This document shows, in pieces, positions 1,557-62,445 of a DNA stretch of 64,000 bases. Within the stretch, counting starts at the first letter, position 1, and every line of letters starts with the position of its first letter. Made by a program: the position numbers and the translations under genes. Below the pieces are notes generated by a model that saw only the letters and a program-made list of their open reading frames with translations, searched no databases and was not told the origin of the DNA. The DNA is from Panicum virgatum. Taxonomy: Eukaryota; Streptophyta; Magnoliopsida; Poales; Poaceae. Where the stretch lies: NCBI RefSeq assembly GCF_016808335.1, contig NC_053145.1, positions 26,068,001 through 26,132,000 of the forward strand. The letters are read 5' to 3'.

Positions 1557-3941
1557 TGTAACACCCGTGAATTAGCGTACAGCCGTTGACCGGACCCTTT
1601 GTAGAAAGACGGAAAAAATTGACTTTTTGAATGATAGCTCGTATGGATGATCCGAGACCGTAGATGCGTAGAGCTCGCAGAGACGAATCCATTTTACTAC
1701 TCATATGTTTCATTCGGACTTCACATGAAGACAATACCAGTGGATGAAGATTGGATCAGTTTGAAAAAAAAACAAAACTGGCCATTGATTGCCGTGAGTT
1801 TAATGGCCATTAGGAATCAGTTTCCTTTTCTCCCTCCCGTGGACTTTTTCTTCTTTTCACGTGTGTTCTCCTTTCCCCTAAATGCAGCTTTATTCTCTTC
1901 CCAATTATTTCCCCCCTCCATTAAAAACCAGCAACTCCTCTTTCCCTGTTTCTCTTTGTTTCTCATGTGCATCTCTCCCTTGCTGCCCTTGTCTCCCTCC
2001 CGATCTAAAACTGCTGCTGAGAGACTAGAGAGAGGAGAAGGTAGTAGGAGGAGAATGGAAAGAAGGACAGGGATGCACAAACCCTAGGCCTTGGGGGGAT
2101 CAAGGTGAGATGGTTTTGATCTAATCCCTTTATTCTGGATGAGATTTAGGGCCTGCAATTACAAACTTTTGTTGGATTAGATGGAGGATTAGACTTGATC
2201 TCATAGTAGTCTCTGCAGAACGTTGGATCGGGCAGTTTCTGTTCGTCGCATGTTTTGTCTACCATAGAGGCCGAACTAAATTCTTCACATGTGGAACTTT
2301 TTGTAGTGGATTCAGAGATCTTTCCACGAAGTCCTATTTCATAATTTTTAGCCTTATGGTTTAGGAGATATTGTAGTTCAAATATGACTGTTTTGTTCTG
2401 ACGAGTTTCTGGACAGTAGTAGATCTATTCTTTTCTTGACGTCTTTAATGGCTGAACCTGTTCTACATGTGACTACCAAAGTTGTAGAGATTTTATCAAC
2501 CTTTCCAGATTGGTATAGAACATAATTTTTTGTTGGATATAGCTCCAGATATAGTCTTCCTAATTGGACTGTTAGACTTTCCTGTCAGAATTACAAGTAG
2601 ATTTCATTGCCTGAATTGGAGTGAAGATAAGGGCAGATTAATCTCTGAATAAAAATAGTATGAATTATCTAACTTGTAGGGACTGTTCTGTAGATTTCAA
2701 AAAGGTATTTGTTTGCTAGCATTGCTTTTGTAGATTTGAAGTTACAAAAATAACAAGCAGCCGTGCTGCTGATAACCGAATCTGTATGCATTGTTTTGTT
2801 CTGTATGATGGGTTGCGAGTAGTAGCGCTATATTTGGTATTCATGTATATTTGTATGAATGCTTGTACTGAGATCACGATGCTAAACAGGTGGTGCACCA
2901 TTGGATCGTGCCTAGCTCAAAGTTGTCTAGATCTTTGCGAAGGCAAGTAAACGTAGCCGTGGTTTATGCTACAACTTTGACTTGTTATTCATTCTACCTA
3001 CACATTAAAAAAATTCAGAAAGTAATGTGATTTCATTATTTTTGTATTAAATTACTTTGTGCATCTATTCATGTTTTCATATGATAAGACTTGTGATTCT
3101 CCAACATGAGGTAAGTGGTATGTTCATATATGTGGTCGTGGGTGGCACAAATGAGGAGCATACTTGCAGTTGCACCATATCATTGCATCATATTGCATTG
3201 CACATCATTCAAGGATGTCGCCGTCTTATGGCCATGATCGTACCAGTATAGCTTCGTACGTTGCCCGAGGAGGAGTACAATGCAGCTTTATACCTTGTTG
3301 GGTATGGAGGCAGTGGACATGGCATATGCATTGCATTGCATTCATTGTGGTTTATCATTGTCATGAAAGTGTATATGCGGTTTTCTCTATTTTGTTCTGA
3401 AGTTCATAAGTGTTTGTGGTTATTTATTTATTTAATATGAGGAAGATCTTAAATATTTCAGATTTATCTTTCCTATCATATCTCTATGTTTAAATTGTTG
3501 TCTAATGAACTTGTAGTTTAAATAACTTGTGAAAGCAGTTTGCTTGCTGAGATTTATTCTCACACCCCTTTATCCTTCCAGGTGCTTGAGTGGATGCCTT
3601 GCTTGAAGGGATGGGATTAGCTGCACATCATCACATTTTTTTATCACACGCTTTTGTAACAATAATGACAAATTTTGTCTTGCTGTAATGAGTTTTGTTA
3701 GTAGACCTTCTGTTTTTTTTCATGGCTTCATAAGAATGAGTGTGGATTTCATTCGCTATTTATCTTTTGTTTATTATGCTCTTTAAATGCTACAATTTGG
3801 TTCATCTTTATATATTGTTTATGTGGTTGCTTCCGCGCTTTACTCTGTTTGTGGGGTTAAGCTGTCGAGTTTTTCAAACTGCAGCTTGTGGGAAGGGTGT
3901 TGAGTGACATCTTAGGCTTTTGTGGTGCCTGGGGTGTTACA
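1557..3941 (+). repeat. 3' LTR of R1 (2385 bp)
   Basis: It begins TGTAACACCC after the polypurine tract and ends GGTGTTACA, giving the TG...CA termini of an LTR. A pyrimidine-rich stretch with CAAACCCTAGG around 2085 looks like a leader, followed by a possible splice donor (AAG|GTGAGA, near 2104) and a possible acceptor (CCTTCCAG, near 3582); this leader intron is tentative. No protein is encoded. The next base, 3942, lies inside the protease reading frame of element A, so R1 inserted into A; its other duplication copy is outside the window. Confidence 0.88.
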
Positions 3942-4479
3942 CCACGTCACCAGTTGGCTTAACCGACGGTTGGCTTGGCATGTTGGAAGGCACCGACTCC
4001 TTGAGTGAGAGTTCCTTAGCAGCAGCAAGTATTTCACTGACAGAGCTGGGAACTCGTATTGTAGCAGCATGATCTATTGCTTCCTTGTCACACTCAAAGG
4101 ACTTGAGGAGGTCTCCGTGTAGAGAAAGCACTCCTGTGTTACCCGGCATCTTGCGGAGCAGGTACACATAATGTGGTACTACCATAAACTTGGCTAGAGC
4201 TGGTCTTCCCAAGATAGCATGGTAAGAAGATTCGAAGGCGACTACTTCAAACTTGATGTACTCCGTCCGGAAGTTCTGTTCTATACCGAATGTGACCGGA
4301 AGAGTAACAGAGACAATTGGTGTAGAATAATTTCCGGGGACGATGCCGTAGAATGGAGCCTTGCTTGGAGTGAGTAGGCTCATGTAGTTGAGGCCCATCT
4401 TGGGCAGTGTACTTGTGAAGATCAAGTTGAGCCCACTTCCGCCGTCAATGAGTACTCGAGTGAGCTTGGAGCCTTGCAC
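3942..4479 (-). pseudogene. Aspartic protease fragment of element A pol
   Basis: The fragment contains the retroviral-type protease motif LIDGGSGLN, with the catalytic Asp present, followed by SSYHAILGRPALAKF, the second conserved block of gypsy proteases with its ILGRP motif. The product would cut the Gag-Pol polyprotein. The frame is ended artificially by the LTR of R1 at 3941. On the other side it continues across the B insertion into gag at 14393. Compared with element C, whose protease has Glu in place of the catalytic Asp, this copy keeps an active-site-like motif. Confidence 0.88.
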
Positions 4480-4484
4480 GACTG
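4480..4484. repeat. Target-site duplication GACTG (left of B)
   Basis: GACTG directly precedes the LTR start TGTCAG and is repeated at 14388-14392 directly after the last LTR base CA. The match defines the outer ends of element B despite its three LTR copies. Confidence 0.92.
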
Positions 4485-4903
4485 TGTCAGACCCGGGGTA
4501 GCGGGACTGCTCATAGGTATAGAATATTCTAGAGTAAGGGATAGCTTATTGATGTACCTTACCTCTTTTGTAACTACCCGAATAGGCGTAGAACTAGCTG
4601 CAGTACAAAGAAAGCTACCCGATTGTGTTGTAGTAGGACTCCAACTGTACTCGGCTAGGACTTTCCATGTAACCCTGTCCCCCTGGATATATAAGGGCGG
4701 GTAGGGACCCCTCCAAACAATCATCAACACCTAAGGCAATACAAACCACCACACAGGATGTAGGGTATTACGCAACTCGCGGCCCGAACCTGTCTAAATC
4801 TTTGTATTCCTTGCACCATCGAGTTCCAGAGCAGTCGATCCCTACCTACAAACCTTACTGCTATAAGGGTATCCCTGAGCAGGCTTGGCGGTAAACACTG
4901 ACA
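4485..4903 (+). repeat. 5' LTR of element B (419 bp)
   Basis: It starts TGTCAGACCCGGGG and ends AACACTGACA. It has a TATA-type box (ATATATAAG, about 4688-4695) and the core TAGGGTATTACGC (4761-4773) followed by GGCCCGAAC, shared with every LTR of the A, B, C, E and F families here. The first LTR copy differs from 13449-13866 by a few percent by eye. Confidence 0.9.
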
Positions 4904-4905
4904 GC

Positions 4906-4923
4906 TGGCACGCCAGGTTGGGG
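4906..4923 (+). promoter_or_regulatory. Primer binding site of element B
   Basis: TGGCACGCCAGGTTGGGG lies two bases after the LTR. Elements A and F have TGGCGCGCCAGGTAG at the same place. TGG pairs with a tRNA CCA end; I do not assign the tRNA. Confidence 0.75.
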
Positions 4924-4949
4924 GTTCGGCGAGTTCATCGGCGAATTCG

Positions 4950-7017
4950 ATGGCCGGATCAAGCGACGCCAACAACATGCCGAAGGGCACGACTCTCGTT
5001 TTCGGTTCCTGAGCATGCACGGCTGACGGATCGGGATGTTTCTCTAGCCACCATGTCACGCCTGACTCACCTAAATCGAAAACCATCCTTCAACTCGCCG
5101 ATATCTGCGAGCCTGCGGATCTCGACGAAAAAGAGTTCTACCCGAACTCAACTCGGACAACCTAGGAAATGTGTCAACTCTAACTCGAAATCTTGGTTCA
5201 GTCGAGTTCGACACAAACTCTGATTCCGAAAAACTCCACTTTTCCAAAACTCTCGGAAAATACTTGACTCATCTCAAGACGATCAAACGCCCAAAGATCA
5301 AAAACTCAGAATTACTCGATGGAGTAAACCGAGTTTTACGATCAATAGAGGGCTGCATCAAACTCGCAGAAATTACTCTTGGCTCATCACAGCAGAACCA
5401 AGAAGCGTTGAACCCGCAACAGAAAAGGTCGGGTGATATACTCTCAGGGATCGATCGAGTGAATTCCAAGCTCGCCGATTGAATTAAGATAGCTGAAGGC
5501 ACCCTGCGAAACAAGGAGAAAAAATAGGAGGAGGAATCTGCGAAGGATCTGGTGAAACAAACCCCCGGCTTGTTCGGATGGGACCGTCTATCTCCAAGAT
5601 ACCTCAGAACCCTTCACCGAAACCTGCTCACATTCAGACTCCTGAACCAGCCTTGTCCTCGTTCGATCAGGACTTTGATCAATTCATGAACGGCCTCGAC
5701 AACTTTGAACCATTCGATGACCTCGAAGACTTGTCTGACAACGTTGACTTGTTCATGGACGCCATGGCCAATCCACCCAAGCATGCTGACACTCTTTGGG
5801 AACTGGCCAAGCTTAAAAAGGGGAAAGCCAAAGTTCCAGAACAATCCAGCAAGTCGATCTTCAATAAACCCTGGATTAAAGAACCAGAAGGGCTGACTCC
5901 CACTCAATCGTGGCTACACTGGATGAATGAGAACGCCCTCCGTGTAGAGATGGGCATTCCACTTCTCGCTCATCCAAAGCATACGTACTCTAAGATCGGT
6001 GGCCTAACCGATTCCAACTCCGAGTACTCCTCCAACTCGGAGAACGAGCTGGATGACCTAATCCAGTATAGCAAGCAAGTCGAATCCGACTCGGCTAAGA
6101 ACTCCAAGTCTGATCAGGATTCCCTCCCTAACTTGGTCATATATGCAACACCGCAAGGACGGACAGTGCACCTAAGGAAGACACAAGAGCTGAACACCTC
6201 CGGCTCGCAGCCAACAGATCTGCCCTTCCAGCAAAGCACCCCTCTAGACCCGTCCTCAAGCAAACAAGACTAAGAAATTCAAGATCTTTGCCGTGCAATC
6301 CTCATGGTTCGCATCTCTGAAGTCCAGGAACTTGAGGATGACCCCACGAAGCGTCTCAACCTCGACAACTACAATTCTGATGATTTCGACGAGTACCTTT
6401 CCAATAACATGGAAACTACTCCTCCCACAATCAGAGAAGCCCAAGCTGCTATCAAGAAAGATGCGCCTGCGCCTCCTCCAGCGGTGACAGTCACCGTGAA
6501 ATTGGAAGAGCAACAACCAGCAGAAGATCTCTACGAGCGTCACCGTCTGCTTAACCAGAAGAAAGTGTTTAGGGGCCAGCATTTGGCCAACAGCCAGCAG
6601 GAACAAAAAGGCGACAACTACGACTACTCAAATTGTGACCTCCGCAACATGATCAACATTGGTCGCGACGCGCGCAATGTCATCATCTCAAGGAGAAAGG
6701 AACGAGAGGAAGTCGAGGTTTACAGCCCTTCCTCCAACTACCGCATCCCAGCAAAGGCTTCCGCATCCTTCAAGAAGTACAAGCCGGTAAACACCCGTCC
6801 TCAGGGTAAACCGCGCACCCCACATCAAGAAGAAACATCTCTCGGCGGAGCCAGGGTCAACAAGATCCTACTCCACAAGTGCTTCATCCACCCAAAGTGC
6901 TCTCACACGATCTTCGAGTGCGACTCACTCCGCAAGGCCCTTGGGGCACCACTCCTGAAGGAGACTCTACCCAAAATCTTGTCGACCACTGTATCAACTA
7001 GTTTTACCTTTAAATAG
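4950..7017 (+). pseudogene. Gag-like region of element B
   Basis: The likely start is ATG 4950, where the peptide resembles the N-terminus of element A Gag (GTTLVFGS here, GATFVFGSW in A). A TGA interrupts it early; the duplicated leader at 13912 keeps TGG at that codon. Open blocks follow at 5171-5482, 5578-6273 and 6304-7017, the last two in one frame separated by TAA. The middle is acidic and Ser/Asn-rich. Near the C-terminus (about 6885-6945) is CFIHPKCSHTIFEC, a C-x2-H-x5-H-x4-C finger equivalent to the one in A Gag (CPIHPKSNHSMWEC). There is no protease after it. The region therefore keeps the two ends of a Gag but not a recognisable capsid core, and is decayed. Confidence 0.65.
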
Positions 7018-7254
7018 TTCTATTCAGTCATGTAAACCATTGCTCACATCTAATGGGCAAGGGGTAGGTTCTAAGAGTTAGAGTCTGTCACTTTACAACT
7101 ATTGTAATTTTGACAAATCCAAATAAAAATTGATTTCTCCCATAAATCGACTACTTGGATTTCACTCATATGACCAAAACTCCATGTCAAAAGTCACACT
7201 CAGCATTAGAGCAGCTATCGAGTAATTTTTATGGTTTACCCTCAAGTGCTTTTT

Positions 7255-8226
7255 CGACATTTACATCTTGGACAACCTGACAGGGTTCGTACCTAACAGT
7301 TTTGTCTTAAAAAGTTACTTTAGTCCTTGGTAAGGACACCTTATTCGCCTCGCTCGAGTAAGTTTTGGATATCTTTTCGACATTTATGTCTTGGGCAACC
7401 CAACGGGGTTCGTATCTAACAGTTCTGTCTTAAGGATTACTCTAGTCCGTGTTTAGGACACCCTACTCGCCAGCTCGAGTAGGTTTTGGATATCTTTTCG
7501 ACATTAACATCTTGGGCAACCCAACGGGGTTTGTATCTAACAGTTTTGTCTTAAGGATTACTCCAGTCCGTGTTTAGGACACCCTACTCGCCAGCTCGAG
7601 TAGGTTTTGGATATCTTTTCGACATTTACGTCTTGGGCAACCCGTCGGGGTTCGTACCTAATAGTTATGTCTTAAGGATTACTCCAGTCCGTGTTTAGGA
7701 CACCCTACTCGCCAGCTCGAGTAGGTTTTGGATATCTTTTCGACAGTTACATCTTGGGCAACCCGACGGGGTTCGTACCTGACAGTTCTATCTTAAGGAT
7801 TACTCTAGTCCGTGTTTAGGACACCTTACTCGCCTCGCTCGAGTAAGTTTTGGATATCCTTCTGACATTTACGTCTTGGATAACCCGATGGGGTTCATAC
7901 CTAACAGTTCTGTCTCAAGGATTACTCCAGTCCTTGGTTAAAGGACGCTCTACTCGCTGGACCGAGTAGGTCTTGGATACTCCTTCGGCATCTTCGTCTT
8001 GGGCAACCCGACGGGGCTCGTACCTAACAGACTTGCCCTAAGAGTTACTCCAGTCCTCAGGTAGGATACCTTACTCACCCTGCTCGAGTAAGTTTGGGAT
8101 ATTTCTAGAATATTTACGTCTTGGTTAACTCAATTGCGTTCAATCCTAACAGTCCCATTTAAGAAATCAGTCCAGTCCATGTATAGGACATACTACTCGA
8201 TAAGATCGAGTAGTCTGGGATATTTT
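7255..8226 (+). repeat. 121-bp tandem array inside element B (about 8 copies)
   Basis: Units begin near 7255, 7378, 7499, 7620, 7741, 7862, 7986 and 8106. Each runs CGACATTTACGTCTTGGGCA, an ACCCGACGGGGTTCGTA block, TCTTAAGGATTAC, TAGTCCGTGTTTAGGACA, then a CTCGAGTAG box. The middle copies are close to identical and the outer ones diverge, the usual pattern of an array grown by unequal exchange. It lies between the gag-like region and the antisense gene. Confidence 0.92.
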
Positions 8227-8834
8227 TCGCAACAGTTGTATACTATCTGGATGACCAATCAAGGCCTATTCTAACTGGTCAACTAATGAAATCCCTCAAG
8301 GAGTACGGACAAGTTCTTGATACTCTAAAAATAGGTTGACAAGAGCCTCCTGTTCACCTATCTATCAAGAAACATCTTAAGCTCCTTTCTAAATACTCGA
8401 TAAGAGTACTCTCCCCGTTGGACAACAAAAGTCCATATGAGCTTCGCTCTGATAAAGCATTTCCTTTGAAAAGGAAATTTGCTTAAAGCTACGACCTCCT
8501 AACATTCTTATAGTGCTTTTCCCACTTGGTTAATCCCGCAGGATTCAATCCTAACCGGTCAGCACTAGAATTTTGATTTAGAAACATACAACTCTATTCC
8601 ATAGGAGAATATTTTGCCTCCTAAGGCACCCACGGATACAATTCTTCGTATCTACTATTATAACTGAGTAGGCGCGGTGCTGCCAACACTCAGGACCTTC
8701 GAGTGCAACTACTCGACACATCAAAGGATTTCACAATCCTACAACAGAATAAGTACTTAAACATTACACAAATATCCAATATTTGTCCAAAAGTACTTTC
8801 GGCTCACATTCCAAAACTCAAATACATTCAAAGT

Positions 8835-11718
8835 TCAAGGGGACTCGGTCTTGCTCAGCGACTCCACTATTTGGCCTGCTACCAATGAGGTTTCTTGCAA
8901 ATACTGAGTGAACTGATCATCAGTACAATCAGACCTTGCGCCCTTCCCGAGTGCATCAAGAGGAGTGGAAGGCCAATAAGATTTCACCAGCCCGAGTACG
9001 TAACCCACGTACTGGCGGGTGATTGTGGAGATATATCTCTCGAAGGCCTCGGGTACTTTACGAAGTCTCCCCGCCAGTGAAAGCGGTTCATCTCCGTCCC
9101 TTTCGGGGATATCCATAACCTCGGCTACTTCTTGAGCAGCATCCTTGACTTCTCTCATCTCCACAAGCTCTCACTGCATCGAGTCCCGCGACTCTGAGAA
9201 GGTCTTGAGCTGTTGAAGAATTGTCGCTGCCTCCCGGTCGGAGTCCTCCTTGATCTTCTCAAGCTTCTCTATTTCATCTACTTTTAGGTACATAAGTATC
9301 TTTAGATCCAGTACCAAGCTTTCCTGAATCTTTAAAGATTTTGCACAAGCTGTGTACTCGGTTGAAAGAAAATCTTATAAACATCAAGCAGATCAACTAG
9401 TCGAATGCATAATATATGCTAAAGACTAACCTTTCTTGGATTGGGAAAGCTTCTTGAACTTCCCTTGGAGGGCAGCCTTCTCGGACAAGAGTGTCTTTAC
9501 CTTCTCTCTCAGAGCGACCAGCTCTGTATCGTCCTGGGCTTGGCTACCCTCTCGCCCCAGTGCTTCCTGCAGAAATATAAAGATCAGTATACTACTCGAT
9601 TTGCACTAAAGTATTCGAAGTATTCGATTACTTACTTCTAGTAGCTTGAAAGTAAGCTCCACCCTCTCTCGTGGCAAGACACTTCCCGCTTAGACCTGGG
9701 AAGTACTCGTCTGCACTTCAGACAAAGCCCTCTTGGGCACATCTTCAATCTTCCCTACAGTATTCCCTGTATTTTGGGAATCTAGAGGAACAATATGCTA
9801 CTTAATACAAGGTGGCACAAGTTTACTTGCAGGGGTCTCCTCATGCAGTTTATCATTGCCTCCCTCAGGAAGCTTCTCGCCATCATCTTTCTCGGGAAGC
9901 TTCTCGCTTCCACCTTCTTCTAGGAGCCTTTCATCGCTCCTCTCGATATTAGGAACTGGTGAATCCAGAAGCATGGCACCTACCATATCTCCTGCATCAC
10001 GAACACTCATATCTGGAGTATTCGGGGGCTTCTCCACCGCTGTCTTGGGGGCTGGGTCATCTTCAGATTACCCACTCGCCCCCAGAAATGTATCGCTGAA
10101 AATACAAAGTAGTTATAAACTACTCGATATAAATACAAATCCTACAATTACAAGTTTCGAGGAACTTACGTAGGAGCTCTTTTCAGAGCAAGCCCCTTGA
10201 TTCCAAATTTGCGGGCAGGCTTCACAACCAGGGCATGCTTTCCCGCATCAAAGGCTTTATTTACATCAGAACTACTCGCCGATAAAGTAGTCTCGGTCCC
10301 CTTTGATGGGTCCACTATGCTAGAAGGGACGGATTGTCCCACCACAGTATCATCCCCAGACGCTGAGGTCCGTGGCAACTTAGTCGCCAGACTTGAAAAA
10401 GAAAAACACAAATCAAAATTTGCAAATCGACAACGAGAAGTACTCGATTGAGCTACTTACCTGTCGCTAGCAGTGTGGGATGAGCTGCTACGCTTCCTCG
10501 CCACTGACCGAGTACCCTTTGGATGCCCGGTTTGGGTATCAGCACTCGGAGTAGGGTTGAGTTCCCTGTCACTCTCCCCAGCCACCTCATCTGCACAACC
10601 AAGATGAGACATTAGTACTATTTATATGAAATCTCATATGAACATACTAAGACTTGGTTAATAGATTAAAAAAATATTGAAAATCAAAAGGGCGAATAAA
10701 TACCTGGCGGTGAAGGACTACTCTTAAAACGCTCCATGTCCTCCTACAAAGAGCAAATCCTATCAGATTTATACTATGGTAAAGTACTCGATCAGTACGT
10801 ATCGACTACTCTTATCAAGTACCTGCTTCGGAGGACTCGCAGCAGAAAATGTATCAGGAACAACTAGGATTTTCTTTACATCCTTTAGCAGTCATTATAC
10901 TCGACTGAATGCTACCTCATCCGAGATCTCTTCCTCCGAGTACCTTGATGAGTCAGTTGTTCCTCGATACTGGAAACCAAGTGTTTCCCGAGCCTATAAC
11001 GGCTGGATCCTTCTTTTCATCCAGTCGAAAACGACTGCCTCTCTAGTCAAATTATTTTGCCTTAGAATGGCAATTCGTTCGAGCAGCTCAGGAATCTGAC
11101 TCTCGTCGACTGGTTTCTTATTCCACTCAGGCCACTGGATAGGAGGGCCTGGAGTAATTGGTGGGAAGCTGTCCCACTGGTTCTCGACATAGAACCACTT
11201 GGGCTTCCATTCGATTACTTTACTACTAAGACTATAAGAAATACACACTCTATCCTTTCTGTGCCTAAGTTGGAGACCTGCACCTCCTACTACATCTAAA
11301 ACAAAGGAGTCTGGCTGCAGTTTCAAGTGGAAAAGGAATCGAAAGAGTTCGAAATGGGGCTCGATGCCCAGAAAAGCTTTAAACAAATACACGGAGATGG
11401 AAATGTGAACAAAGGAATTAGGGTCAAGTGATGGAGCTGGACCCTATAGTAACGCAGGAGCCCAGAGAAGAAGGATGAACAAGGAAAACCCAATCCCCGT
11501 TCCAAATTAGGTGTGAAAGAAATAATTTTCCCCGTATTTTCATACGGATGAACTTTACCCAAGGCAGGACGCCATTGGATAACAGATCTGGGAACCAGAA
11601 GACCATCCAAAACTAAGGTTTCAAGGTCAGATTCAGAGCACTTACTCATGTTCCAGCCTTCTTCCCGGGTTGGCTCTGCAGTCGCACCTTTACCCTTGCT
11701 CGTTTTCTTGGGGGCCAT
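8835..11718 (-). pseudogene. Antisense seven-exon gene in element B (Transposase_28-like plus coiled coil)
   Basis: On the strand opposite to B. Proposed exons: 11718-10823, 10743-10704, 10590-10461, 10391-10170, 10095-9636, 9566-9431 and 9373-8835. All six introns (57-113 nt) are GT-AG and their phases agree, so one frame of about 807 codons results. Exon 1 starts MAPKKTSKGKG and contains the domain seen in many grass element proteins (Pfam-type 'putative gypsy transposon', PF04195): GFPCSSFFSGLL, then FLGIEPHFELFRFLFHLK. Exons 3-5 are Ser/Thr- and acid-rich with a short EKLPE repeat; exons 5-7 are charged and helical, coiled-coil-like; the tail contains YWPSTPLDAL. Exon 1 has a one-base deletion near 11432, and seven in-frame stops occur, each reachable from CAG, CAA or CGA by one C-to-T change. 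A TATAAAAT box lies near 11888-11895. The molecular role is unknown. Confidence 0.78.
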
Positions 11719-13435
11719 CCGAAAATCAACGGATCACTTCACGCGCATACAATGGCGGAAACACTAAGGTGAAATTAGGGAGCAAAGAGAAGCAACAGAT
11801 GTAGATCTGGGGGCTGGAAGGCAAGAACAGATCTAAAGTAGCGAAAGTAAATGGCGCCCGGTGGGGTAAAACCTAGTTACCGTTTCATTTTATAAGGGCT
11901 GTGGCAGCACAGCAAAAACACCCAACACGCCAATAGTCCGTTGCAAATCGCGGAAAAAATAGGATTTTCTGAGACATTCCTTTTTCTAAGATTACATTAT
12001 GGAAAAATAAAACACTCACATCCCTAGTCAACTACTTGATTTTTCTTTCCTCGACTGGGACTACATTCCAGAACAAATAAAGGTACTTGATACATTACAA
12101 CTACTCGATGTTACAACTCGAGTACTTTTTTCTAACTATTTATACAATGACTCGGACCTGCATGCACATCGCCTGGATCTCCTAGAGCTTCTAGTCAACG
12201 TCTGCTGTAGCTAGATCGGCCTGAGGCCATGACAAAGTATAAACTTGTTATTCCCACTAAGGGAATAATGATACTCGTACTCTGGAGAAAAGTTTCAAGA
12301 GTTTGGAGGCAGATTACAGTAATCACATCGCAAGTCCTCTTGTAGCATCTTGCGGAGAAATTTCTCCTTCTCCCAAAATACGTTGTGACAAGATTAAACC
12401 TTCCTGCCAGAGATGTCAGTTCTTGGGTACCCAGAAACAGGCAACCCCAAGGATGTGACACAACAAGACTCAATCAGACCACATTGAACCTGCCTCATTG
12501 GAAGATGCAAGGACATGATGTCCAGAATGGATCCAATGAGAGCATGGGAGTGGCAGAATGAGGTAGCAGGGACTTCTCTTGTCACTTGCAAGTTCTCTTC
12601 TAGCATCTTTTGTTGGAGAGGACTACATAAACTTCAGGAGGCTGAGAGCAAGAACACCAAGGATAAGCCATGGCCGCTAAACGATTGGTGCTTCTGGCAA
12701 AGGCCTCTCCCTCACCTTTTATAGCCGTAAGGGGGCTTACTGAAGGAGAACCCGAGACTCTACAGTGCATGCATTCACGGATGCATTCATGGCAGTATTC
12801 ATGGAGTGATTCATGGGTGCAATCAAGCACGCAATAATTCTCCAAACAGTAACGTCCCACGTGAGCACTGAATAAAGAGCCGTACATCCCGGGTTTTATT
12901 CTTGAAGTTATTTCGAGTGCAATAAGTGTGGCGTATCCAATTGTATCATTTTTCTGGGATTTTACCCAGAAAAGAGGTCTTTTCGGATTCTAGATCTAAT
13001 GAATCCTACAAATAATCTGAAGGATAAAATCTGATGCCACGTCTCAAATCCTTAATTCCAAATCTATGCTCGGGGGCTACCCGTTGTAAAAAGAATTTTG
13101 ATTTAAGGCTCGGGGGCTGCAGGATATGTGCATCAGAGATTTATTTTTCAAATTTTTTGGAAAATAATGAAGGAAAAAGTCTGAAGTGACCCTCAGCCTG
13201 ATTCTGCGATTCAACCTAAGGCTCGGGGGCAACTCCATATGGAGCGCGAGTACTTCGCGCACCATATATGACTAAGATTTCGGGGCTTGAGCACCACACA
13301 GCCTCGACGCAACATGAAGTATTTGGAGGACTACTCGACATACCTGAAGGAAGCAACCAGAAGGACGTGCTGACTACTTGAAGTACTCGAAGACGCCCAG
13401 CCAAGTATTCAACGCCTGCAGGACTCGGCTACGAA
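11719..13435. other. Non-coding 3' region of element B, including antisense promoter
   Basis: No supported reading frame. The first 180 bases upstream of the antisense ATG hold a minus-strand TATAAAAT box (about 11888-11895), fitting a promoter for the antisense gene. Further right are two diverged copies of a CTTCTAGCATCTT-type motif (12340 and 12600) and several CTCGGGGGC motifs (13075, 13110, 13225, 13435) that resemble polypurine tracts. Confidence 0.55.
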
Positions 13436-13448
13436 GAGCTCGGGGGCT

Positions 13449-13866
13449 TGTCAGACCCGGGGCAGTGGGACTGCTCATAGGTATAGAATATTCTAGAGTA
13501 AGGGATAGCTTATGGATGTACCTTACCTCTTTTGTAATTACCTGAATAGGCGAAGAACTAGCTGCAGTATAGAGGAAACTACCCGATTGTGTTGTAGTAG
13601 GACTCCAACTGTACTCGGCTAGGACTTTTCATGTAAACCTATCCCCCCGGATATATAAGGGCGGGTAGGGACCCCCTCCAAACAATCATCAACACCTAAG
13701 GCAATACAAACCACCACACAGGACGTAGGGTATTACGCAACTCACGGCCCGAACCTGTCTAAATCTTTGTGTTCCTTGCACCATCGAGTTCCAGAGCAGT
13801 CGATCCCTAACTACAAACCTTACTGCTAAGGGTATCCCTAAGCAGGCTTGGCGGTAAACACCGACA
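13449..13866 (+). repeat. Second LTR of element B (418 bp)
   Basis: It follows the polypurine tract, starts TGTCAGACCCGGGG and ends ACACCGACA. On its own it would be a normal 3' LTR, but primer site and leader sequence follow it instead of the GACTG target copy. Confidence 0.9.
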
Positions 13867-14160
13867 GCTGGCACGCTAGGTAGGGGGTTCAGCGAGTTCA
13901 TCGGCGAATTCGATGGCGGGATCAAGGGACGCCAACAACGTGCCGGAGGGCACGATTCTCGTTTTCGGTTCCTGGGCATGCACGGCTGACGGATCGGGAG
14001 GCTTCTCTAGCCACCATGTCACGCCTGACTCGCCTAAACCGAAAACCATCCATCAACTCGCAATAATCCGCGAGCCTGCGGATCTCGACGAAAAAAGAGT
14101 TCTACCCGAACTCAACTCGGACAACCCAAAAAATGTGTCAACTCTAACTTGAACTCTTGG
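13867..14160 (+). repeat. Duplicated primer site and gag leader after second LTR
   Basis: This matches 4904-5200: TGGCACGCTAGGTAGGGG primer site, ATG at 13912, and the N-terminal Gag frame of about 79 residues. It keeps TGG where the first copy has TGA. It stops abruptly at about 14160, joined to the middle of a third LTR. Confidence 0.88.
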
Positions 14161-14387
14161 CGGGTATATAAGAGCAGGTAGGGACGCCCTCCAAACAATC
14201 ATCAACACCTAAGGCAAATAGGCAATACAAACCACATCACAGGACGTAGGGTATTACGCAACTCGCGGCCCGAACCTGTCTAAATCTTTGTGTTCCTTGC
14301 ACCATCGAGTTCTAGAGCAGTCGATCCCTACCTACAAACCTTACTGCTAAGGGTATCCCTAAGCAGGCTTGGCAGTAAACACCGACA
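14161..14387 (+). repeat. Third, 5'-truncated LTR of element B
   Basis: It begins at the TATA-like box (GGGTATATAAGAGC) and runs through the TAGGGTATTACGC core to ACACCGACA, then GACTG at 14388-14392. About 190 bases of the LTR 5' part are missing at the leader junction. Confidence 0.88.
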
Positions 14388-14392
14388 GACTG

Positions 14393-16851
14393 GGTTGAGT
14401 ACTAGTGGGAACTTTCCAGGCTTAGAGAAGCTGGTCCATTGATCTTCCCTGTAGAAGGTAATGGGGACCTCACTGTATTTTAGTGACCTTTGAATTACTG
14501 GCTTGACTGAAAGGATCTCTCTGAGTAGGAGCTTTTCGGCTCACTTGGAGAAGCTGGGATCTCCTCCAAATATGACGTTGACGATGTTTTGTGGCTGTTG
14601 GAACCCATCAAGGTCGTTCTTGTCATCTTCGTCATCTTTGTTCTACTTTTTCTTAGGAGCATCTGCAAGTGCCGACTGGAAGGATTTGCGCAGGATCGTG
14701 CACTCCCACATCGAGTGGTTGCTCTTGGGGTGGATTGGACACCTTTTGTTGTGAAGGATCTTGTCGAACTGGTCTTGCGGTTTGTCACCATGCAGAGTGC
14801 GATCCATGGTGCTGACAGTGTCGTCAGGCTTGCGCTTACGCGCAGGATCCCATTGGTTACTGGGCCCTCCACAATCGTTGTGGCGCTTCCCATTGTAGCT
14901 GTTGTTGCAGCGTGGGAAGCGGCTGCATTCTTGCTCCTCTTCGTCTGCCCAACGTTGCATCATGTCTCGTAGCTCCACTACCATTTTGGGGCGATTGCGC
15001 CCGAAGTCACGGTATAAAGATTGGACAGTAATGCCGCTCTAGAAGTAGTCGATGACTTTGTCATCGGTGACGTTGGGGTTGGTGGCTCTTGTGTCGAAGA
15101 AGCGCTTGATGTAGGATCTGATCGATTCGCCTTGCTCCTGCTTGCACATGGATAGGGCGTGTCGAGTAGCTACTCGATGTAGTGACCCTTGGAAGTTGTT
15201 GATGAAGGCCTTCTTGAGATCATCCCATGAGTGTATGGACTCGCGTGCCAAGCTTTCGAGCCACGTGAGGGGTGCAGGCTCTAGGCCATCGGGAGTAGAG
15301 GACCTTGGTGTTGGTGTCTCCCCATGCAACACTAACAGCAGTCGAGTATAAACGTAACCATTGAGCAGGATCTTGCTTACCATCGTACTTTTTGATGTTC
15401 GTGGGCTTGAAATCCTTCGGGTACTCAATGTTGTCGAAGACTCTGCTGAGGGCTTGGAAGCGATCGGATTTGTCTGCAAGCTGCGATCTACGTCCTGCAT
15501 TGATGATGTCTCGTGCGTCCACTATGGAATCGGCTACCTCCTCCCTGTTGTGCCCGTGGTTGTTGTTGTTGTGATTTGGCTGAGGCCCAGGAGCTTGGTT
15601 TGCCGGTGGTTGGCCACCCCTGTGTCGATGAATGCTCATGACTTCCTGATCCTCCTGGTTTCTTTGATTTTGCTACTCCAGCTGTTGTTGACGATGGTGG
15701 CCTCCGGGAGTACGACTTGCCTGAGGTATGACTGTTGCGATGGCCCTTGACTAGGTGCCATGAAGCGAGGACAACGGGTTTTGTCTCTCGAGTTGTTCCA
15801 AAGCATTCTTGGCAAGGTGTATGACACATTCCATCTCTGGGTTTTGAGGCATCTACATGAGCCTCAGGGTTACTTCTGTCATCGCGGCGATTGGGGTTCT
15901 GAAGACTAGATCCGCGACGTTGTTGAATTCATTATTGAGGTTGCGCAGGGGAAGGCGATCTCGCTCAGCAGCTCGAACCCTGCGTTCTCCTTTACATTGA
16001 TTTCTTGCCCTGCGAGCTGTGTGAGTAGATTCATCCTCTTCTTGTGGAGCGTCTTGGGTCAGGTTGTCTTCTGAAATCTGATCCAAGGCTTCATTGGGAC
16101 CATGCTGACTGGGAGCACCTCCGGGTTATTGGATGATCACCGGAACCAAACATTTGGGGGAGAAGCTTTCCAGGTTTGATTCGTAATCAGCTAGGACAGT
16201 TCCTCCAGACCTAGTTTCTCTCTCGGTTACGAGGGGAGTACCGTGTTGAAACGGAAGATCATCAATGCTAGCAACTTCTTGAAGGTTGCCGAGTAGTTCT
16301 GCCAGAGTATGACTTTGGCAGAAGTCGAGTTGGATTTTTGCCAACGCATTGGTGATGAAATCCAGGCTATCTTGAGATGACTCAACTGGATCTGGGTATA
16401 CGTCGAAAATGGGTGCCTCCCGGCTAGCGATGACTGAGTGGTTCTCGACGTAGAGAAGATGATCCAAGCTATTTTCATAGATGGATCTGATCATCTATTT
16501 GTAAGTAGATGATGAATTGCGCAACCTGAAAACGGGTTGAGTAAGAGGAGTGCCAACCCGAGTAGAATTTAGTTTGAAATTGATCTGAGAACGAGTGGAA
16601 CTCGAGTTGTCTTCAAGTTTCGTCTCGATCTCCTTGGCGATGTCGGGAAGCAGCACGATGCCATGATCATCTGATCTGGCGAGCCTGTTGGAGCTTTTTG
16701 ACGTGGTGATCTTCAGTGTGGGTGAGTTGGTTAGGTAGCTGTCGAAGCCGCTCGAACCGTTGGCGACACAAACCCACGAGCCGAAGACGAAGGTGGCACC
16801 TTGAGGAGGCGCCACGGTGCTGAAAGCGAAAGTGGCCATCGAACTCACCAA
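14393..16851 (-). pseudogene. gag of element A
   Basis: It starts near ATG 16836-16838 (MATFAFSTVAPP; an upstream in-frame ATG lies at 16851). Recognisable blocks are the N-terminal GATFVFGSW, a charged RR-rich linker, the capsid-type core from about 15450 (KKYDGKQDPAQWLRLY, WLESLARESIHSWDDLKKAF, SIRSYIKRFFDTR), and the finger CPIHPKSNHSMWEC near 14690. The sequence between finger and protease (FGGDPSFSK, then LKYSEVPITF) is continuous into 4479 once B is removed. It is broken by in-frame stops at 16497-16495, 16128-16126, 15853-15851, about 15664, 15041-15039 and 14645-14643, a TGA near 14545, further damage around 15750, and a frameshift near 15300. Gag would form the particle; this copy is dead. 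Confidence 0.85.
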
Positions 16852-16865
16852 TAAACTCGCCGAGT

Positions 16866-16883
16866 CCTCTACCTGGCGCGCCA
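16866..16883 (-). promoter_or_regulatory. Primer binding site of element A
   Basis: On the minus strand TGGCGCGCCAGGTAGAGG follows the LTR end after two bases. It matches the element F site nearly exactly and the B site with a few changes. Confidence 0.8.
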
Positions 16884-16885
16884 GT

Positions 16886-17301
16886 TGTCAGTGTTTACCG
16901 CCAAGCCTGCTCAGGGATACCCTTAGCTGTAGGGTTGGTAGGTAAGGATCGACTGCTCTGGAAATCGATAGTGCAAGGAACACAAAGATTTAGACAGGTT
17001 CGGGACGCGAGTTGCGTAATACCCTACGTCATGTGTGGTTGTTTGTATTGCCTTAGGTGTTGATGTGTTTTGAGGGGGTCCCTGTAAGCCCTTATATATC
17101 CGGGGGGACAGGTTTACATGGAAAGTCCTAGCTGAGTACAGTTGGAGTTCTACTACAGCACGATCGGGTAGTTTCCTTTGTACTGCAACTAGTCCTACGC
17201 CTATTTGGATAGTTACAAGAGAGGTAAGGTACATCCATGAGCTATCCCTGACTCTAGAACATTCTATACCTATAAGCAGTTCCGCTGCCCCGGGTCTTAC
17301 A
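16886..17301 (-). repeat. 5' LTR of element A (416 bp)
   Basis: Minus-strand copy of the B-type LTR, starting TGTAAGACCCGGGG at 17301 and ending CACTGACA at 16886. It includes a TATATAAG box (about 17091) and the TAGGGTATTACGC core (about 17014-17030). The flank 17302-17306 is TACCA; the partner duplication lies outside the window. Confidence 0.9.
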
Positions 17302-21606: not shown

Positions 21607-21631
21607 GTCCTACAGGCGTTGAGTACTTGGC
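21607..21631 (-). other. 25-bp island of A/B-family sequence between two LTR fragments
   Basis: GTCCTACAGGCGTTGAGTAC and the next five bases are the reverse complement of the 3' region of element B (about 13398-13424) with two mismatches. The island appears to be a leftover of an A/B-type element into which the flanking LTR sequences inserted. Confidence 0.6.
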
Positions 21632-27584: not shown

Positions 27585-29090
27585 CTAATCAAAGGGCTCA
27601 GAGAACTTCAGCCTCCGTGGCGCAGTCGGCGGAGTCCCTGAGCTAATGAGCGGGGGCGTCACCTCTCCGCACAGCTGGCCTACCACCTGGGTCGCCTCCT
27701 TCTCGACATGGGGGCCGGCCGATGCCGACCCCACCTCAGCGATGGCTGGGGGCGCTGACGCTCCCCGGACTTTGCTCGCCCCCTTCCGGGTTGAGCTCCT
27801 CTGCGTCCGCTGCGATGCCGCTAACCCAGCTTTCGATAGCTGGATCTTTTTGATGGTGCGGCGTGTCTTCCTCTTCAGGGCGGCCGACGGCGGTGGCCTT
27901 GAGGCCCCGGTGATCTCCACCTCTGGCTCACTCCCCATGGAGGAGTCGGAGGAGAACTCGGCCTCCTCCTCTGCCGGCTGGCGCAGCTCGGCGGGGGCGG
28001 CGGTGTCCTTCCCAGGGTCCCCCTTAGGCAGAGGAGCAGGGGACCAGTCCTCCAAGACCTTGGCCTATAGAAGAGCTGAGTTGTTATACAACCCAACAGG
28101 TGCACTCGAAAAAACAGAGCAAAAATAGAGGAAACGCCCCAGAACGAATAAAACAACTCGGCAAAGCTCAAGAATTCTTACTTCGTCGGTCGGCCGCTTC
28201 AGGCAGTGGGCTTTGAGACAGCCCTTGTCCCGGATCTGCCCCGCCATGATGCGGGCGACCCGGTTCACGATCTCATCCCGGGGAACCGTGCGTTCATGTC
28301 CCCGGGTGGGCTCCCGATGACCCCAGTATTTGAAGGCCGGGTGGACCCTCTCTTGGATCGGCTGTGTGAGCTGCCTGTAGAAGGAGATGGACACCGCGGC
28401 CCCCGTCAGGCCCCGCGCCAACAAGTCGGTGATCTCCTGGAGGAGGTGCTCCACTTGCGCCATCTCCTCGGTGGTTGGCGGCTCCTCCCAGCACGCCTTG
28501 TACTCCGGCGCGCAGCCGGTGCGCGTCGGGAGGCAGGGCGCCGAGTTCGCCACCACGAACCATTCCCGCGCCCACCCCTTGTTGGTGCCGCGGAGCTTGA
28601 AGTTGGGGTAGACGCTCCCCTGGTGCAGCGAGAAGGTGGCCCTGCCCTCAATGCTCTGGCGAACATTGGACTGGTGCCCCTTGAGGCGGTACAGAGCCCG
28701 CCACAGATTGAAATGGGAAGTGATGCCCAGGTACCCCTCGCAGAGGTGGATGAAGATGGCGATTTGTACAATTGAATTGGGCTTGAGATGAGTTACCTCG
28801 AGCCTGTATAAATGGAGAGGCCTGCGGAAAAATGCCCCCGCGGGCAGCGCGAAGCCCTTCTCGTAGAAGGACTTGAACACGACCGTCTGGTTCATGTCCT
28901 CCGACGGGAACTCCTTCCCGTAGCAGCACCGCCACCCGGAGATCTGCTTCTCCGGGAGGAGGCCGCGCTCCACAAGGTCTTGGATGTCGCTCTCTTGGAG
29001 CGAGCACTTCTGCTAGGATGACGATGGTGGCGGGGCCTCTCCGGAACTCACCGAAGTCGAAGACGCAGATGCAGCAGGTGAGGCGGCCAT
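27585..29090 (-). pseudogene. Antisense two-exon gene in element C (Transposase_28-like)
   Basis: ATG at 29090-29088, exon 1 to 28182, intron 28181-28065 (GTAAGA...CTATAG, phase 0, 117 nt), exon 2 28064-27585. After a Ser/Pro-rich start (MAASPAASASS) an in-frame TAG stands at 29015-29013. The domain follows: GWRCCYGKEFPSED, GFALPAGAFFRRPLHLYRLE, then IFIHLCEGYLGI. Exon 2 is low-complexity, Lys/Arg- and Ala-rich, with KRKTRRTIKK, which could act as a nuclear signal. Exon 1 is clearly homologous to exon 1 of the B gene and to the F gene. A TATTTAAATA box lies about 145 bases upstream (29231-29243). The gene faces the element's own 3' LTR, so its transcript would be antisense to the pol end. Confidence 0.78.
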
Positions 29091-37685: not shown

Positions 37686-37690
37686 TATGC

Positions 37691-40937: not shown

Positions 40938-40957
40938 AAATCTCGTCCCCGAGATTT
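40938..40957 (-). other. Hairpin overlapping pol stop of element D
   Basis: Minus strand AAATCTCG, loop GGGA, CGAGATTT: a perfect 8-bp stem with a GNRA-type tetraloop. It overlaps the TAA stop (40958-40956) and abuts the polypurine tract. R1 has the same loop on a different stem at the same place. Confidence 0.75.
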
Positions 40958-46099: not shown

Positions 46100-46359
46100 C
46101 TCTGTAACACCCGGTTTATAAAAGAACATAAACCGAGCAATCATATACGTGCCAGGATCAAGTCACACGTATATACAACAGAAGGAACAGTATATCACAG
46201 CACATATCATGAATAAGACATAATAAATCGAAATACGAATGTTATTTATTACATTAATGACAAAAACGTCTGATACAGTGGAAGCGAAGTACAAGTACGA
46301 ATAAAGCTCTCCGAAGCTGAAGCAGGGCGCCACAGGGACGTCGACTGGGAGACGAACAC

Positions 46360-53398: not shown

Positions 53399-53410
53399 CC
53401 CCCTGAGAAA

Positions 53411-55074: not shown

Positions 55075-58000
55075 ATGGTGTCCCTTGTTCATCCCCGCCG
55101 CTACCAGAAAGAGGGAAAGTTGAACACAGTGCGCCGTCTGCTGGGATGGAGTGCTCAAGAGACCGGCTGGGGGGTGTGAGCAGGCTCGGTTCCCTTGGCA
55201 ACCTCCGCGCGCGGGGAGTTTGTGCTATTTATCTCGCACATCTCCACCGGCGTGGGACTGCCGATTTCTTCATTCCTACTGCTGCTGCTGGAAGACTTCG
55301 GCCTCCAACTTTAGCATCTGACGCCACACTCCCTCCTCCTGACGTCCATCTTCGTGCATTTATGCGAGATGTTCGTGGGAGTTCGGCCCTGCGTCATCCT
55401 CTTCCGCTACTTCTTCATTCTGGTGAGGTCCGGAAGGAGCAAGGACGAGGTGGGGGGGTACTACTTCCAGGTGAGGAGTGACCTGGCGACTCCTTACATT
55501 CCCGGCCTTGCTGGCGGGAAGTGGGAGGAGTGGCGCAGGGATTGGGTGATCGCCACCACCGAAGCCAACGAGCGCCTCACCCTGCCGACCGAGGGGCCCG
55601 CGCCGACAAGGCATCCTGGAGGGCCAAGCCGTCGCTGCAGCCAGAGTTCGACTCCGTGCTGGACAAGATCAGGTCGCTGGCGGAGAGTGGCCTCACCTCG
55701 TGGCACATGCTCGGGGACTTCGTGAAGCGCCGGATCGCTCCCCTGAAGCAGCGGCCGCGTGCTGCGTGGAACTTCACCGGCCTCAACGACTGCAGCAGGA
55801 CCCAACGCGGAGAGGGGAGCGACCTGACCCAGGAGGCCTTGGAGGTTCTGGTGCGGAACGTGACGGGGGACGCCTTCATCCCGGAGAACCTGATCCTCCC
55901 ACAGAGCATAGTCCCCCTCTGCGAGGACTCCGCGAGGGTGGCGGTGCTGGCAACCCTGTCGACTCTGGACGACGGGGGACTGGCCCCATGCCAGACCAGA
56001 GGTGACGCGAACCGCGGGCTCCGGATCCCTGGTGCATCCAGGGATCAGGCTATGCTGAGCGCTGCGGGACCCGGCGCCACCACGAAGGGGAAGCAGGCCG
56101 CGGCTAGCAGCGCGGCCGCAGCCGGCTCCAGCCGTGCACAGGGCAGCTCCGGTACATCGTTGGGCGACGCAGGCCGGCGCAGGCTACTCCGGGGCGATGG
56201 GACCCTGGTCTCGGAGCCCGCCGTGAAGCGCCAGAGGTCTTCTGAGGGCGCAGGCCAGGGTAGCTCCCGGGCTGCCGGCCCCCACGGGCCCTCTGGGGCG
56301 ACTAGACCACCACCATCGCCGCCGAGGAATTCCTCCCGCCGGCAGCAAGAGCAGCAGCAGCAGCCGCAAGAGCAACGGCAGCAGGCACGCGGGCGGCAAC
56401 AGCAGCAACAGGTGCGACCCCGGGTTGCGCCCATGCCGCAGCCACAGGGACAGCAGCAGCGGGAGTAAGACCGGGTTGCGCCTGCATCGCAGCTGCAAGG
56501 GCGGCAGCAGCAACAGCAGCAGCCGCAAGAGAAGAGGCCCGGGCTCCGGGGACGCTGGGTACCCGGTACTTCTGGGTTAGTGTCATCCTGCTCTCTTCCC
56601 TTGCGCCGGTGCTCTGTTTTGTTTTTTGAAGGCTTTTCTGCTTTGTTACCAGGGCTCCTCGCCCCAGCGGTTCTTCTACCCTCGCCGGCACATCGGCAGG
56701 TGCCCAGGCGGCTTCGACAGCGACGGCGACAGCAGATGCGGGACCCTCTCTGGACGCCGCAGCCCCCGGCGCTGCGGCGGCGGAGGCGCCAGTGCTGGGC
56801 GCAGCCGCACCCGACACGGTGATGGAGATGCCAGTGCTGGGCGCAGCCGCACCTGACGCATCGGCGGCGGGGGCGCCGGTATTTGGCACAGCCGCACCCG
56901 ACGCGGCGGCGGCGGAGGCACCGGGGCAGGGCACGGCCGCGTCTGCCACGGCGGCAGCGGGGGCGCCGGAGCTGAGCTTGGCCGCGCTCGACACGGCGGC
57001 AGCGGGGGCCCCGGAGCTGAGCTCGGCCGCGCTCGACACGGCGGCAGCGGGGGCGCCGGAGCTGAGCTCGGCCGCGCTCGACACGGCGGCAGCGGGTGCG
57101 CCGGAGCTGGGCACAGCCACACCCGACGCGGTGGCAGCGGAGGCGCCGGAGACAAGTGCCGCAGCGGAAGCCCCCACCTCCAGCTCCAGTCCGGTTGCAG
57201 AGGAGGAGTTGGAGGTGGTCTTTGGCAGGCGGCTCCTGCAGCTCCAACTCCCAGAGGAAGATGCGACTCCCCTTCCTCAGGTGCTGTTGCAGGTTCGGCG
57301 GTCGATCGAGGAGGCAACCTCCTCCGCCGAGGTGGCCTTCCGGCGGGAGTGGTCTGCTCTGGAGAGCGAGTGCCAGCGCCTCTCCGACTAGCACACCCGC
57401 CTGGAAGCGCACACGAAGGCTGAAGCCTCCCGCGCTGCGGAAACTCGGTCAAAGCTCAAGGCGGACCAAGAGGCCTACCGAGCCAACCTTAGGAAGGTGT
57501 TTGACCGAGAGTTTGCAGTGTCAAACCGAGAGAAATCCTTGGCGCAGCGGGAGCAGGACTTCACCCTGGAGGTTGTTGGCTTCGCTACTCAGCGGTCCGA
57601 CCTCGAGGCTCACCTCGCAGCTCAACAGTCCGAGCTGGAGACTCGCAGCGAGGACCTCGAGGTCCGGAGGCAGGAGCTCGACGTCTTCTCTGCGAATCTG
57701 CAGGGATGGCGTGAACAACTGCAGGAGAGAGCCCGCCAGCTAACTGCCGACGAGGCGGATTTGGAGGAGGGCCGGAAGTCCCTCGCCAAGCGGGAGGCTC
57801 ACGCCACCGCCATAGAGAAGGAACTTGGGCGCCAGCGAGACTCGCTCAAGAAGCTGAAGGAGTGGGCGGAGCAGAGGGAGGCCAAGCTCGAGGAGAGGTC
57901 CCGCGTGCTCGAGGAGAGGTCCCGCGAGGTGAAGGTGGCCAAGGCGGCCCTGGACACCCGGGTGCAAGAGGCGGTCCAGGAGGCGGTCCGGAAGCACCAG

Positions 58001-58387
58001 GAGGACCAGTGCGCGGGAGCCCAGCGGATCGCGGACTGGGCGGCCGAAGCGAGCCTCGCACTGGTGCCATTTGGAATGAGCCCGATCCAGGTGGCGGAGC
58101 CGCCAGCTTCGATAGCTGACGCTCTCCCAGTGCTGAGCTCTACTTCGGATAGGCTCCAGCGCCTGGGGCCGGTCCTTGCTGGACAGCTCGAAACCGAGGG
58201 CCGCGAGCTAATCCGGATGGTGGCGGAGCACATCCGGACCTGCCTCCGGAGCCACGACCCGACCATCTCGTTGGCACCCGTGGTCGATGGCCCTGTAGCG
58301 GAGACGGAGATCGCCGCTCGGGACAGCGTGCGAGAGGTCATTGACTTCGTTGCCGCCTACTTCAACCGGGAACCTGCGGACCCTTGA
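55075..58387 (+). pseudogene. Antisense gene in element F (Transposase_28-like plus coiled coil)
   Basis: Antisense to F. The chosen start is ATG 55075 (MVSLVHPRRYQKEGK). Domain blocks: GVGLPISSFLLLLLEDFGL (about 55250-55310), IFVHLCEMFVGVRP (55345-55390) and WVIATTEANERL. Then come a helical stretch (LTSWHMLGDFVKRRIAPL), a Gln-rich low-complexity part (56340-56530), a predicted intron 56576-56652 (GTTAGT...TTACCAG, 77 nt, phase 2, frame restored), an Ala/Pro-rich repeat with LDTAAAGAPELSS units (56960-57110), and a long Glu/Arg-rich coiled coil (57300-58000) ending at TGA 58385-58387. Breaks: TGA 55177-55179, TAG 55312-55314, one-base loss near 55600, TAA 56466-56468 and TAG 57389-57391. Layout agrees with the B gene: N-terminal domain, low-complexity middle, coiled-coil tail. 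The function is unknown. Confidence 0.77.
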
Positions 58388-62427: not shown

Positions 62428-62445
62428 CCCCTACCTGGCGCGCCA
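62428..62445 (-). promoter_or_regulatory. Primer binding site of element F
   Basis: Minus strand TGGCGCGCCAGGTAGGGG, two bases after the LTR end CACGACA. Same site as element A, different from element E. Confidence 0.8.

What the first reader, a model, noticed from the sequence alone, without database searches (positions are those of the whole stretch)
8835..11718. Seven-exon gene hidden antisense inside a retrotransposon
On the strand opposite to element B, six GT-AG introns with agreeing phases join seven exons into one frame of about 800 codons. An element copied through an RNA intermediate would normally lose introns. A gene lying antisense keeps them, because the copied RNA carries the introns as complements that are not spliced. 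The exon borders can be read directly. Antisense extra ORFs are known in some Tat-like plant elements (for example in the maize Grande group), but an intron-rich example with this layout deserves description.
Basis: partly seen in the sequence, partly recalled or inferred. Interest (0 to 1): 0.88.

Follow-up and report, generated by a model that had tools for sequence, protein, structure and literature searches.

The report
Intron-rich antisense gene in plant retrotransposon
A plant jumping element carries, on its back strand, a now broken accessory gene whose six introns fit together cleanly; this kind of gene is known, but its intron-rich build was not mentioned in the papers seen and would explain how introns survive in an element that copies itself through RNA.

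Summary
The exon-intron layout is real, but this copy is dead. Seven antisense exons (11718-8835) are separated by six GT-AG introns (69-113 bp) whose phases all agree. The joined length, 2399 nt, is not a multiple of three: one frameshift lies inside the PF04195 domain and seven in-frame stops follow, so the 800-codon frame is not literally there. PF04195 passes its cut-off on both sides of the shift. Five of six introns have donor and acceptor among the top 11 of 169 GT and 262 AG sites. Relatives conserve exon 1 up to the predicted donor and exon 7 from the predicted acceptor. A roughly 30% identical antisense gene in element C has a phase-0 intron in the same column as intron 1. Antisense PF04195 genes are a known hallmark of Retand elements (Vicient 2025); the word intron is absent from that paper and from the 2020 review. 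The carrier has no detectable pol. Splicing itself is not shown: no listed relative shows a spliced junction. New variant of a known kind.

The parts
4485..4903 (+). 5' LTR of element B, followed by a PBS-like stretch; preceded by the 5-bp duplication GACTG (4480-4484)
   Evidence: LTRs 94.5% identical over 420 columns
5497..7017 (+). gag-like remnant (two ORFs, no significant Pfam match to gag); a 35-residue zinc-knuckle-like match to the host element's gag region
7251..8124 (+). 121-bp tandem repeat array, 7.2 copies
10823..11718 (-). exon 1: PF04195 domain; holds the frameshift and three in-frame stops
10744..10822 (-). intron 1, GT-AG, 79 bp, phase 0; shared with element C
10704..10743 (-). 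exon 2
10591..10703 (-). intron 2, GT-AG, 113 bp, phase 1
10461..10590 (-). exon 3
10392..10460 (-). intron 3, GT-AG, 69 bp, phase 2; best donor of the region
10170..10391 (-). exon 4
   Evidence: no stop in model frame, 7 and 4 in the others
10096..10169 (-). intron 4, GT-AG, 74 bp, phase 2
9636..10095 (-). exon 5; three in-frame stops
9567..9635 (-). intron 5, GT-AG, 69 bp, phase 0; best acceptor of the region
9431..9566 (-). exon 6
9350..9430 (-). intron 6, GT-AG, 81 bp, phase 1; weak acceptor in this copy (rank 120 of 262)
8835..9349 (-). exon 7: long helix (probably coiled coil) and conserved C-terminal part; one internal stop; terminal stop at 8837-8835
11889..11894 (-). TATA-like box upstream of the gene (promoter role inferred)
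13449..13866 (+). 3' LTR of element B
28182..29012 (-). element C: antisense PF04195 gene, exon 1 (open stretch)
28065..28181 (-). element C: GT-AG intron, 117 bp, phase 0, same alignment column as intron 1 of B
27588..28064 (-). element C: open stretch that follows in frame once the intron is removed
55213..58387 (+). element D: decayed antisense relative, open across the intron-1 position, one candidate linker intron starting near 56576
   Evidence: no Pfam match

Best explanation
The feature is a decayed copy of the antisense accessory gene (TRP28 gene) of a Retand-type LTR retrotransposon, built as seven exons and six spliceosomal introns. In working relatives it would be transcribed toward gag from its own promoter near the 3' LTR (inferred; an own promoter is stated for maize Grande gene23), spliced, and translated into a protein of about 800 residues: the PF04195 domain in exon 1, a variable linker in exons 2-5, and a helical, probably coiled-coil part with a conserved C-terminus in exons 6-7. 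The introns persist through reverse transcription because the packaged RNA is copied from the other strand, where they read CT...AC and are not spliced (established splicing logic). The protein is probably a nuclear factor acting in trans on the element's DNA or RNA (inferred). The carrier lacks a detectable pol but kept the gene's architecture, so it presumably moved with enzymes of an autonomous relative (inferred). Shown: anatomy, phase agreement, PF04195 match, conservation of exons 1 and 7 up to the predicted splice sites, the matching intron in element C, the lesions.
For: Six GT-AG introns with agreeing phases and A+T-rich content; donors in the top 11 of 169 and five of six acceptors in the top 11 of 262; PF04195 above cut-off on both sides of the shift, 29.5 and 36 bits against 26.2. 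Of 120 listed exon-1 relatives (405 found), 16 match my pattern for the end of exon 1: 14 read on with valine (GT in frame), 2 end there. Of 120 listed exon 6+7 relatives (570 found), 119 start to align at or after the junction residue; among 17 with upstream residues, by my reading 9, 4 and 1 read the intron in three different frames and 3 cannot be called, while exon 7 stays in frame. Element C: phase-0 GT-AG intron in the same column at about 30% identity, ending in an in-frame TAG. Antisense TRP28 in all but two of 63 Retand clusters (PMC11963269).
Against: No spliced sequence was seen in any listed relative. Seven stops and a frameshift in this copy. The free splice-path search recovered exactly only 3 of 6 introns. 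Intron 6 has a weak acceptor here (rank 120 of 262). Exons 2-5 have no support from relatives, and the full joined query found nothing. Element D is open across the intron-1 position. B has no RT, so Retand membership rests on PF04195, LTR kinship and layout.
Confidence: 0.78

Rival explanations
1. No spliced gene: a short antisense ORF with PF04195 plus unrelated downstream ORFs; the joining introns are a chance fit found by looking for GT-AG pairs.
For: No spliced relative seen; a free search fits other introns equally well when stops are punished; exons 2-5 without relatives.
Against: All six phases agree; splice sites rank near the top; conservation stops at the predicted borders; independent intron in element C in the same column and phase.
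Confidence: 0.1
2. A recently captured host gene with its introns, lying antisense in one element.
For: Intron-rich genes are typical of host genes, and LTR elements do capture genes (PMC7264820).
Against: 405 relatives at E up to 1 for the exon-1 piece and PF04195 or a relative also antisense in elements C and D; the reviews report no TRP28 or aORF similarity outside TEs.
Confidence: 0.05
3. The antisense transcript matters as RNA (double strand with the genomic RNA, silencing or interference), not as a protein.
For: This role is discussed for antisense aORF transcripts by Vicient and Casacuberta 2020; this copy cannot make the whole protein.
Against: Amino-acid conservation of exons 1 and 7 among relatives and kept splice phases argue for a protein in the family at large; dN/dS could not be computed because only proteins were reachable.
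Confidence: 0.07

Closest known systems
Antisense TRP28 (PF04195) aORFs of the Retand lineage, with Retand ORF4 and the antisense aORF of rice RIRE2 (Vicient 2025, PMC11963269; Vicient and Casacuberta 2020, PMC7264820)
   Same: PF04195, antisense to gag, toward the 3' LTR, tandem array nearby, 5-bp target duplication, non-autonomous members known.
   Different: Described there as ORFs; the word intron does not occur in either text. Here six introns in a carrier without detectable pol.
Maize Grande gene23 (seen only through PMC7264820)
   Same: Antisense gene in the long 3' internal region, own promoter, nuclear protein.
   Different: No sequence of gene23 was compared here; its exon structure was not seen.
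HTLV-1 HBZ (PMC1459196, abstract and outline only)
   Same: A spliced gene antisense in an LTR retroelement.
   Different: Works alike at most; no kinship tested or claimed. HBZ starts in the 3' LTR and has two splice variants.
Sense introns of Ogre and EVADE (PMC12786077 and PMC6317226, passages)
   Same: Introns in plant LTR retrotransposons.
   Different: Those lie in the sense RNA; here the introns lie on the other strand.

Membership tests
Retand-type antisense TRP28 accessory gene | PF04195 domain above its curated cut-off | tested here: met
   29.5 and 36 bits against 26.2, in two pieces either side of the frameshift
Retand-type antisense TRP28 accessory gene | Antisense to gag-pol, between pol and the 3' LTR | tested here: inconclusive
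   Antisense to the gag-like remnant and before the 3' LTR, but no pol is detectable in B
Retand lineage (element B) | Reverse transcriptase in the Retand clade | not testable with these tools
   B has no detectable RT
Retand lineage (elements C and D) | Reverse transcriptase in the Retand clade | not tested
   C has a Pfam RT; no tree was built
Retand lineage (element B) | 5-bp target duplication, tandem array, long 3' internal region | tested here: met
   GACTG at 4480-4484 and 14388-14392; 121-bp array, longer than the 8-100 bp units of the survey
Spliced antisense gene | GT-AG introns with agreeing phases | tested here: met
   six of six
Spliced antisense gene | Spliced transcripts | not testable with these tools
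   no RNA data; no spliced junction among the listed relatives
Working accessory gene (this copy) | Open reading frame through all exons | tested here: not met
   one frameshift, seven in-frame stops

The most novel reading that the evidence does not exclude
Intron-rich antisense accessory genes are a general and old property of Retand-type elements: the PF04195 ORFs and the separate antisense Smc or coiled-coil ORFs listed in surveys (104 antisense ORFs in 63 clusters) are often exons of one spliced gene, at least one intron of which predates the split of elements B and C, and antisense orientation is what protects these introns from loss during retrotransposition. Pol-less elements that keep the gene would make its product a trans-acting factor.
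Probability: 0.45. Interest if true: 0.75.

Novelty: new variant of a known kind. Interest (0 to 1): 0.55.

Why it matters
A 2025 review states that plant LTR elements generally lack introns, naming Ogre and EVADE as exceptions (PMC12786077, passages), and the 2020 review of additional ORFs asks that spliced antisense transcripts be looked for (PMC7264820). A six-intron antisense gene model with one intron matched in a diverged element gives something concrete to map reads to. If true, scattered antisense ORFs would become one protein with a PF04195 head and a helical tail, and the family would be a natural test of how introns escape loss during retrotransposition.

Tried and rejected
Full joined antisense protein as one query: nothing at E 0.001 among 7991 scored candidates; shorter pieces worked. 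DNA of relatives was sought in viral contigs and prokaryote genome contigs: each of the five scans had pattern matches but no confirmed relative. AlphaFold model of the exon-1 region (50 sequences): mean pLDDT 42.8, too poor for a fold search. Exon-7 model (34 sequences): mean pLDDT 73.1, a confident long helix and a less certain helical end; no fold search was run, because a single long helix matches much. The free splice-path search is kept only as a chance control. Recent host-gene capture was rejected because of the many relatives. Paper searches gave no report of introns in antisense aORFs in the titles, abstract starts and passages seen; the original Grande gene23, RIRE2 and Retand papers and the Steinbauerova extra-ORF survey were not read, so absence from print is not established. 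The third protein search went to exons 6+7, so exons 2-5 were never searched apart.

Full report
What was claimed.

What is there. The exon borders can be placed exactly: exons 11718-10823, 10743-10704, 10590-10461, 10391-10170, 10095-9636, 9566-9431 and 9349-8835, introns of 79, 113, 69, 74, 69 and 81 bp. The phases are 0, 1, 2, 2, 0, 1 and agree at all six joins (frames, joined reading). Introns are 65-73% A+T and exons 42-54%. The joined coding length is 2399 nt, which leaves a remainder of two. A frameshift lies inside exon 1, between two pieces in different frames that each match PF04195 (E 8.7e-7 and 8.6e-9), and seven in-frame stops follow: three in exon 1, three in exon 5 and one in exon 7. 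This copy is a pseudogene, and the single 800-codon frame is not literally present.

More than chance? Frame openness is separate evidence: for exons 4, 5 and 7 the model frame has 0, 3 and 2 stops (the 2 for exon 7 include its terminal stop), while the other two frames have 7 and 4, 14 and 6, and 11 and 8; for exon 6 it is 0 against 2 and 1; exons 2 and 3 are also open in a second frame. A free search for the best spliced path through 10993-9174 scored 7.2, against a mean of -110.9 and a maximum of -30.7 in 60 shuffles, and a maximum of 6.5 in 78 other window segments (best of three frames each), the two best of which start at 42001 and 43501, in a region with a long gag-pol ORF. That search also warns against over-confidence: because it punishes stops, it added introns to skip them and returned exactly only introns 2, 3 and 5.

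Relatives. The protein database evidently holds plant-type DNA caught in metagenomes (inferred from PF04195 hits on short contigs). The exon-1 piece found 405 proteins at E up to 1, the top hit 87% identical (120 listed). Of the 120, 16 match my pattern for the end of exon 1; 14 continue with valine, the codon that a GT donor gives when read through in phase 0, and 2 end there; none shows the spliced junction. Exons 6+7 found 570 proteins at E up to 0.001 (120 listed). Their alignments start at query residue 46, the junction residue, in 15 of 120, inside exon 7 in 104, and at residue 37 in one. Seventeen carry residues upstream of the acceptor; by my reading 9, 4 and 1 of these read the intron in three different frames while exon 7 stays in frame, and 3 are too short or too diverged to call. 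This is what a non-coding stretch before a coding exon should look like. It does not show splicing, because the proteins look read from unspliced DNA by gene finders that favour open frames. Exons 2-5 have no such support, and the full joined query found nothing.

A second gene in the window. Element C has a reverse transcriptase match at 24366-24839 and an integrase-like ORF at 26212-27147 on the + strand (the integrase match, 25.5 bits, is below its cut-off of 32.6, but the ORF is 52% identical to the integrase of element D). Antisense to them lies a PF04195 gene at 29012-28182 (E 2.2e-22). Its exon-1 protein is only about 30% identical to those of the B family, yet C has a GT-AG interval 28181-28065 (117 bp, phase 0) in the same alignment column as intron 1 of B (PPKE|V against PTDE|V; the column match is explicit for relatives P0051 and P0080, while the alignments of P0050 and P0118 end earlier). 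The last codon of that interval is an in-frame TAG, so it must be removed for the next open stretch (28064-27588) to follow in frame. Its splice scores are moderate (donor second of 87, acceptor seventh of 134), and C also has an in-frame stop upstream of the PF04195 part. Element D (LTR-like repeats 53408-54482 and 62445-63516, integrase on the minus strand) has a decayed antisense relative at 55213-58387, found by tblastn but without a Pfam match in the four pieces scanned. It is open across the intron-1 position and has one candidate linker intron starting near 56576 (its phase agreement was worked out by hand). So intron 1 looks old but is not universal.

The carrier. Element B runs from 4485 to 14387 with LTRs of 419 and 418 bp, 94.5% identical, plus a tandem leader-and-partial-LTR piece (13867-14387), flanked by GACTG. 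It holds a gag-like remnant (5497-7017) without a significant Pfam match to gag, a 121-bp tandem array and the antisense gene. tblastn with RT, integrase, gag and protease-like pieces of other elements in the window gave one match below E 0.1, a 35-residue zinc-knuckle-like stretch. B is therefore most likely non-autonomous; a diverged pol outside the reach of these queries was not excluded by a profile scan. It interrupts a minus-strand element whose LTR with about 50 bp of leader is 89% identical to its own, which has a Pfam gag and a stretch 56% identical over 117 residues to the gag-protease ORF of C. That family is a candidate helper (inference). A TATA-like box lies at 11894-11889 on the antisense strand; that it is a promoter is inference.

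How it most likely works. Inferred from anatomy and literature: transcription from an internal promoter toward gag, as stated for Grande gene23; splicing of six introns; a protein with the PF04195 head and a helical, probably coiled-coil tail (confident long helix in the exon-7 model); nuclear action in trans on the element.

Compared with what is known. Antisense TRP28 ORFs occur in all but two of the 63 main Retand clusters, and 32 have tandem arrays (PMC11963269; parts 1-3 of 5 read, and passages). The word intron does not occur in that paper or in the 2020 review (parts 1-2 of 3 of the review read); the review asks for spliced antisense transcripts to be looked for. Neumann 2019 found PF04195 in 23% of Retand elements, with an extra-ORF cut-off of 250 codons (passages), which would split or miss multi-exon genes (my inference). 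A 2025 review says plant LTR elements generally lack introns, except Ogre and EVADE (passages). The layout resembles the spliced antisense HBZ gene of HTLV-1 (abstract), with no kinship claimed. The original gene23, RIRE2, Retand and Steinbauerova papers could not be read, so introns may already have been noted there.

Verdict. New variant of a known kind.

Noticed in passing
13867-14387: After the 3' LTR of B come a second copy of the leader (to 14160) and a third, partial LTR (14161-14387): a tandem or recombined insertion, with the duplication GACTG after it.
   Followed up: partly
3937-4484 and 14388-17301: The element that B interrupts lies on the minus strand, with an LTR 89% identical to B's (17301-16834) and a Pfam gag: B appears to have landed in its own kin.
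   Followed up: partly
55213-58387: Element D's antisense relative: open across the intron-1 position, with long low-complexity and repeat-rich stretches and an open 331-codon stretch at its end.
   Followed up: partly
40956-44936: A 1326-codon open gag-pol ORF on the minus strand, far less decayed than its neighbours.
   Followed up: no
46102-50252: Two repeat copies of about 2.3 and 1.9 kb lie head to tail, 93% identical, and match 37690-39976 (98.5%), 32513-34594 and, inverted, 20063-21607.
   Followed up: no
11861-11977 and 12174-12275: Proteins P0037 and P0069 join peptides matching these stretches upstream of the gene to inner parts of exon 1: deletion copies, or perhaps spliced leaders.
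   Followed up: no
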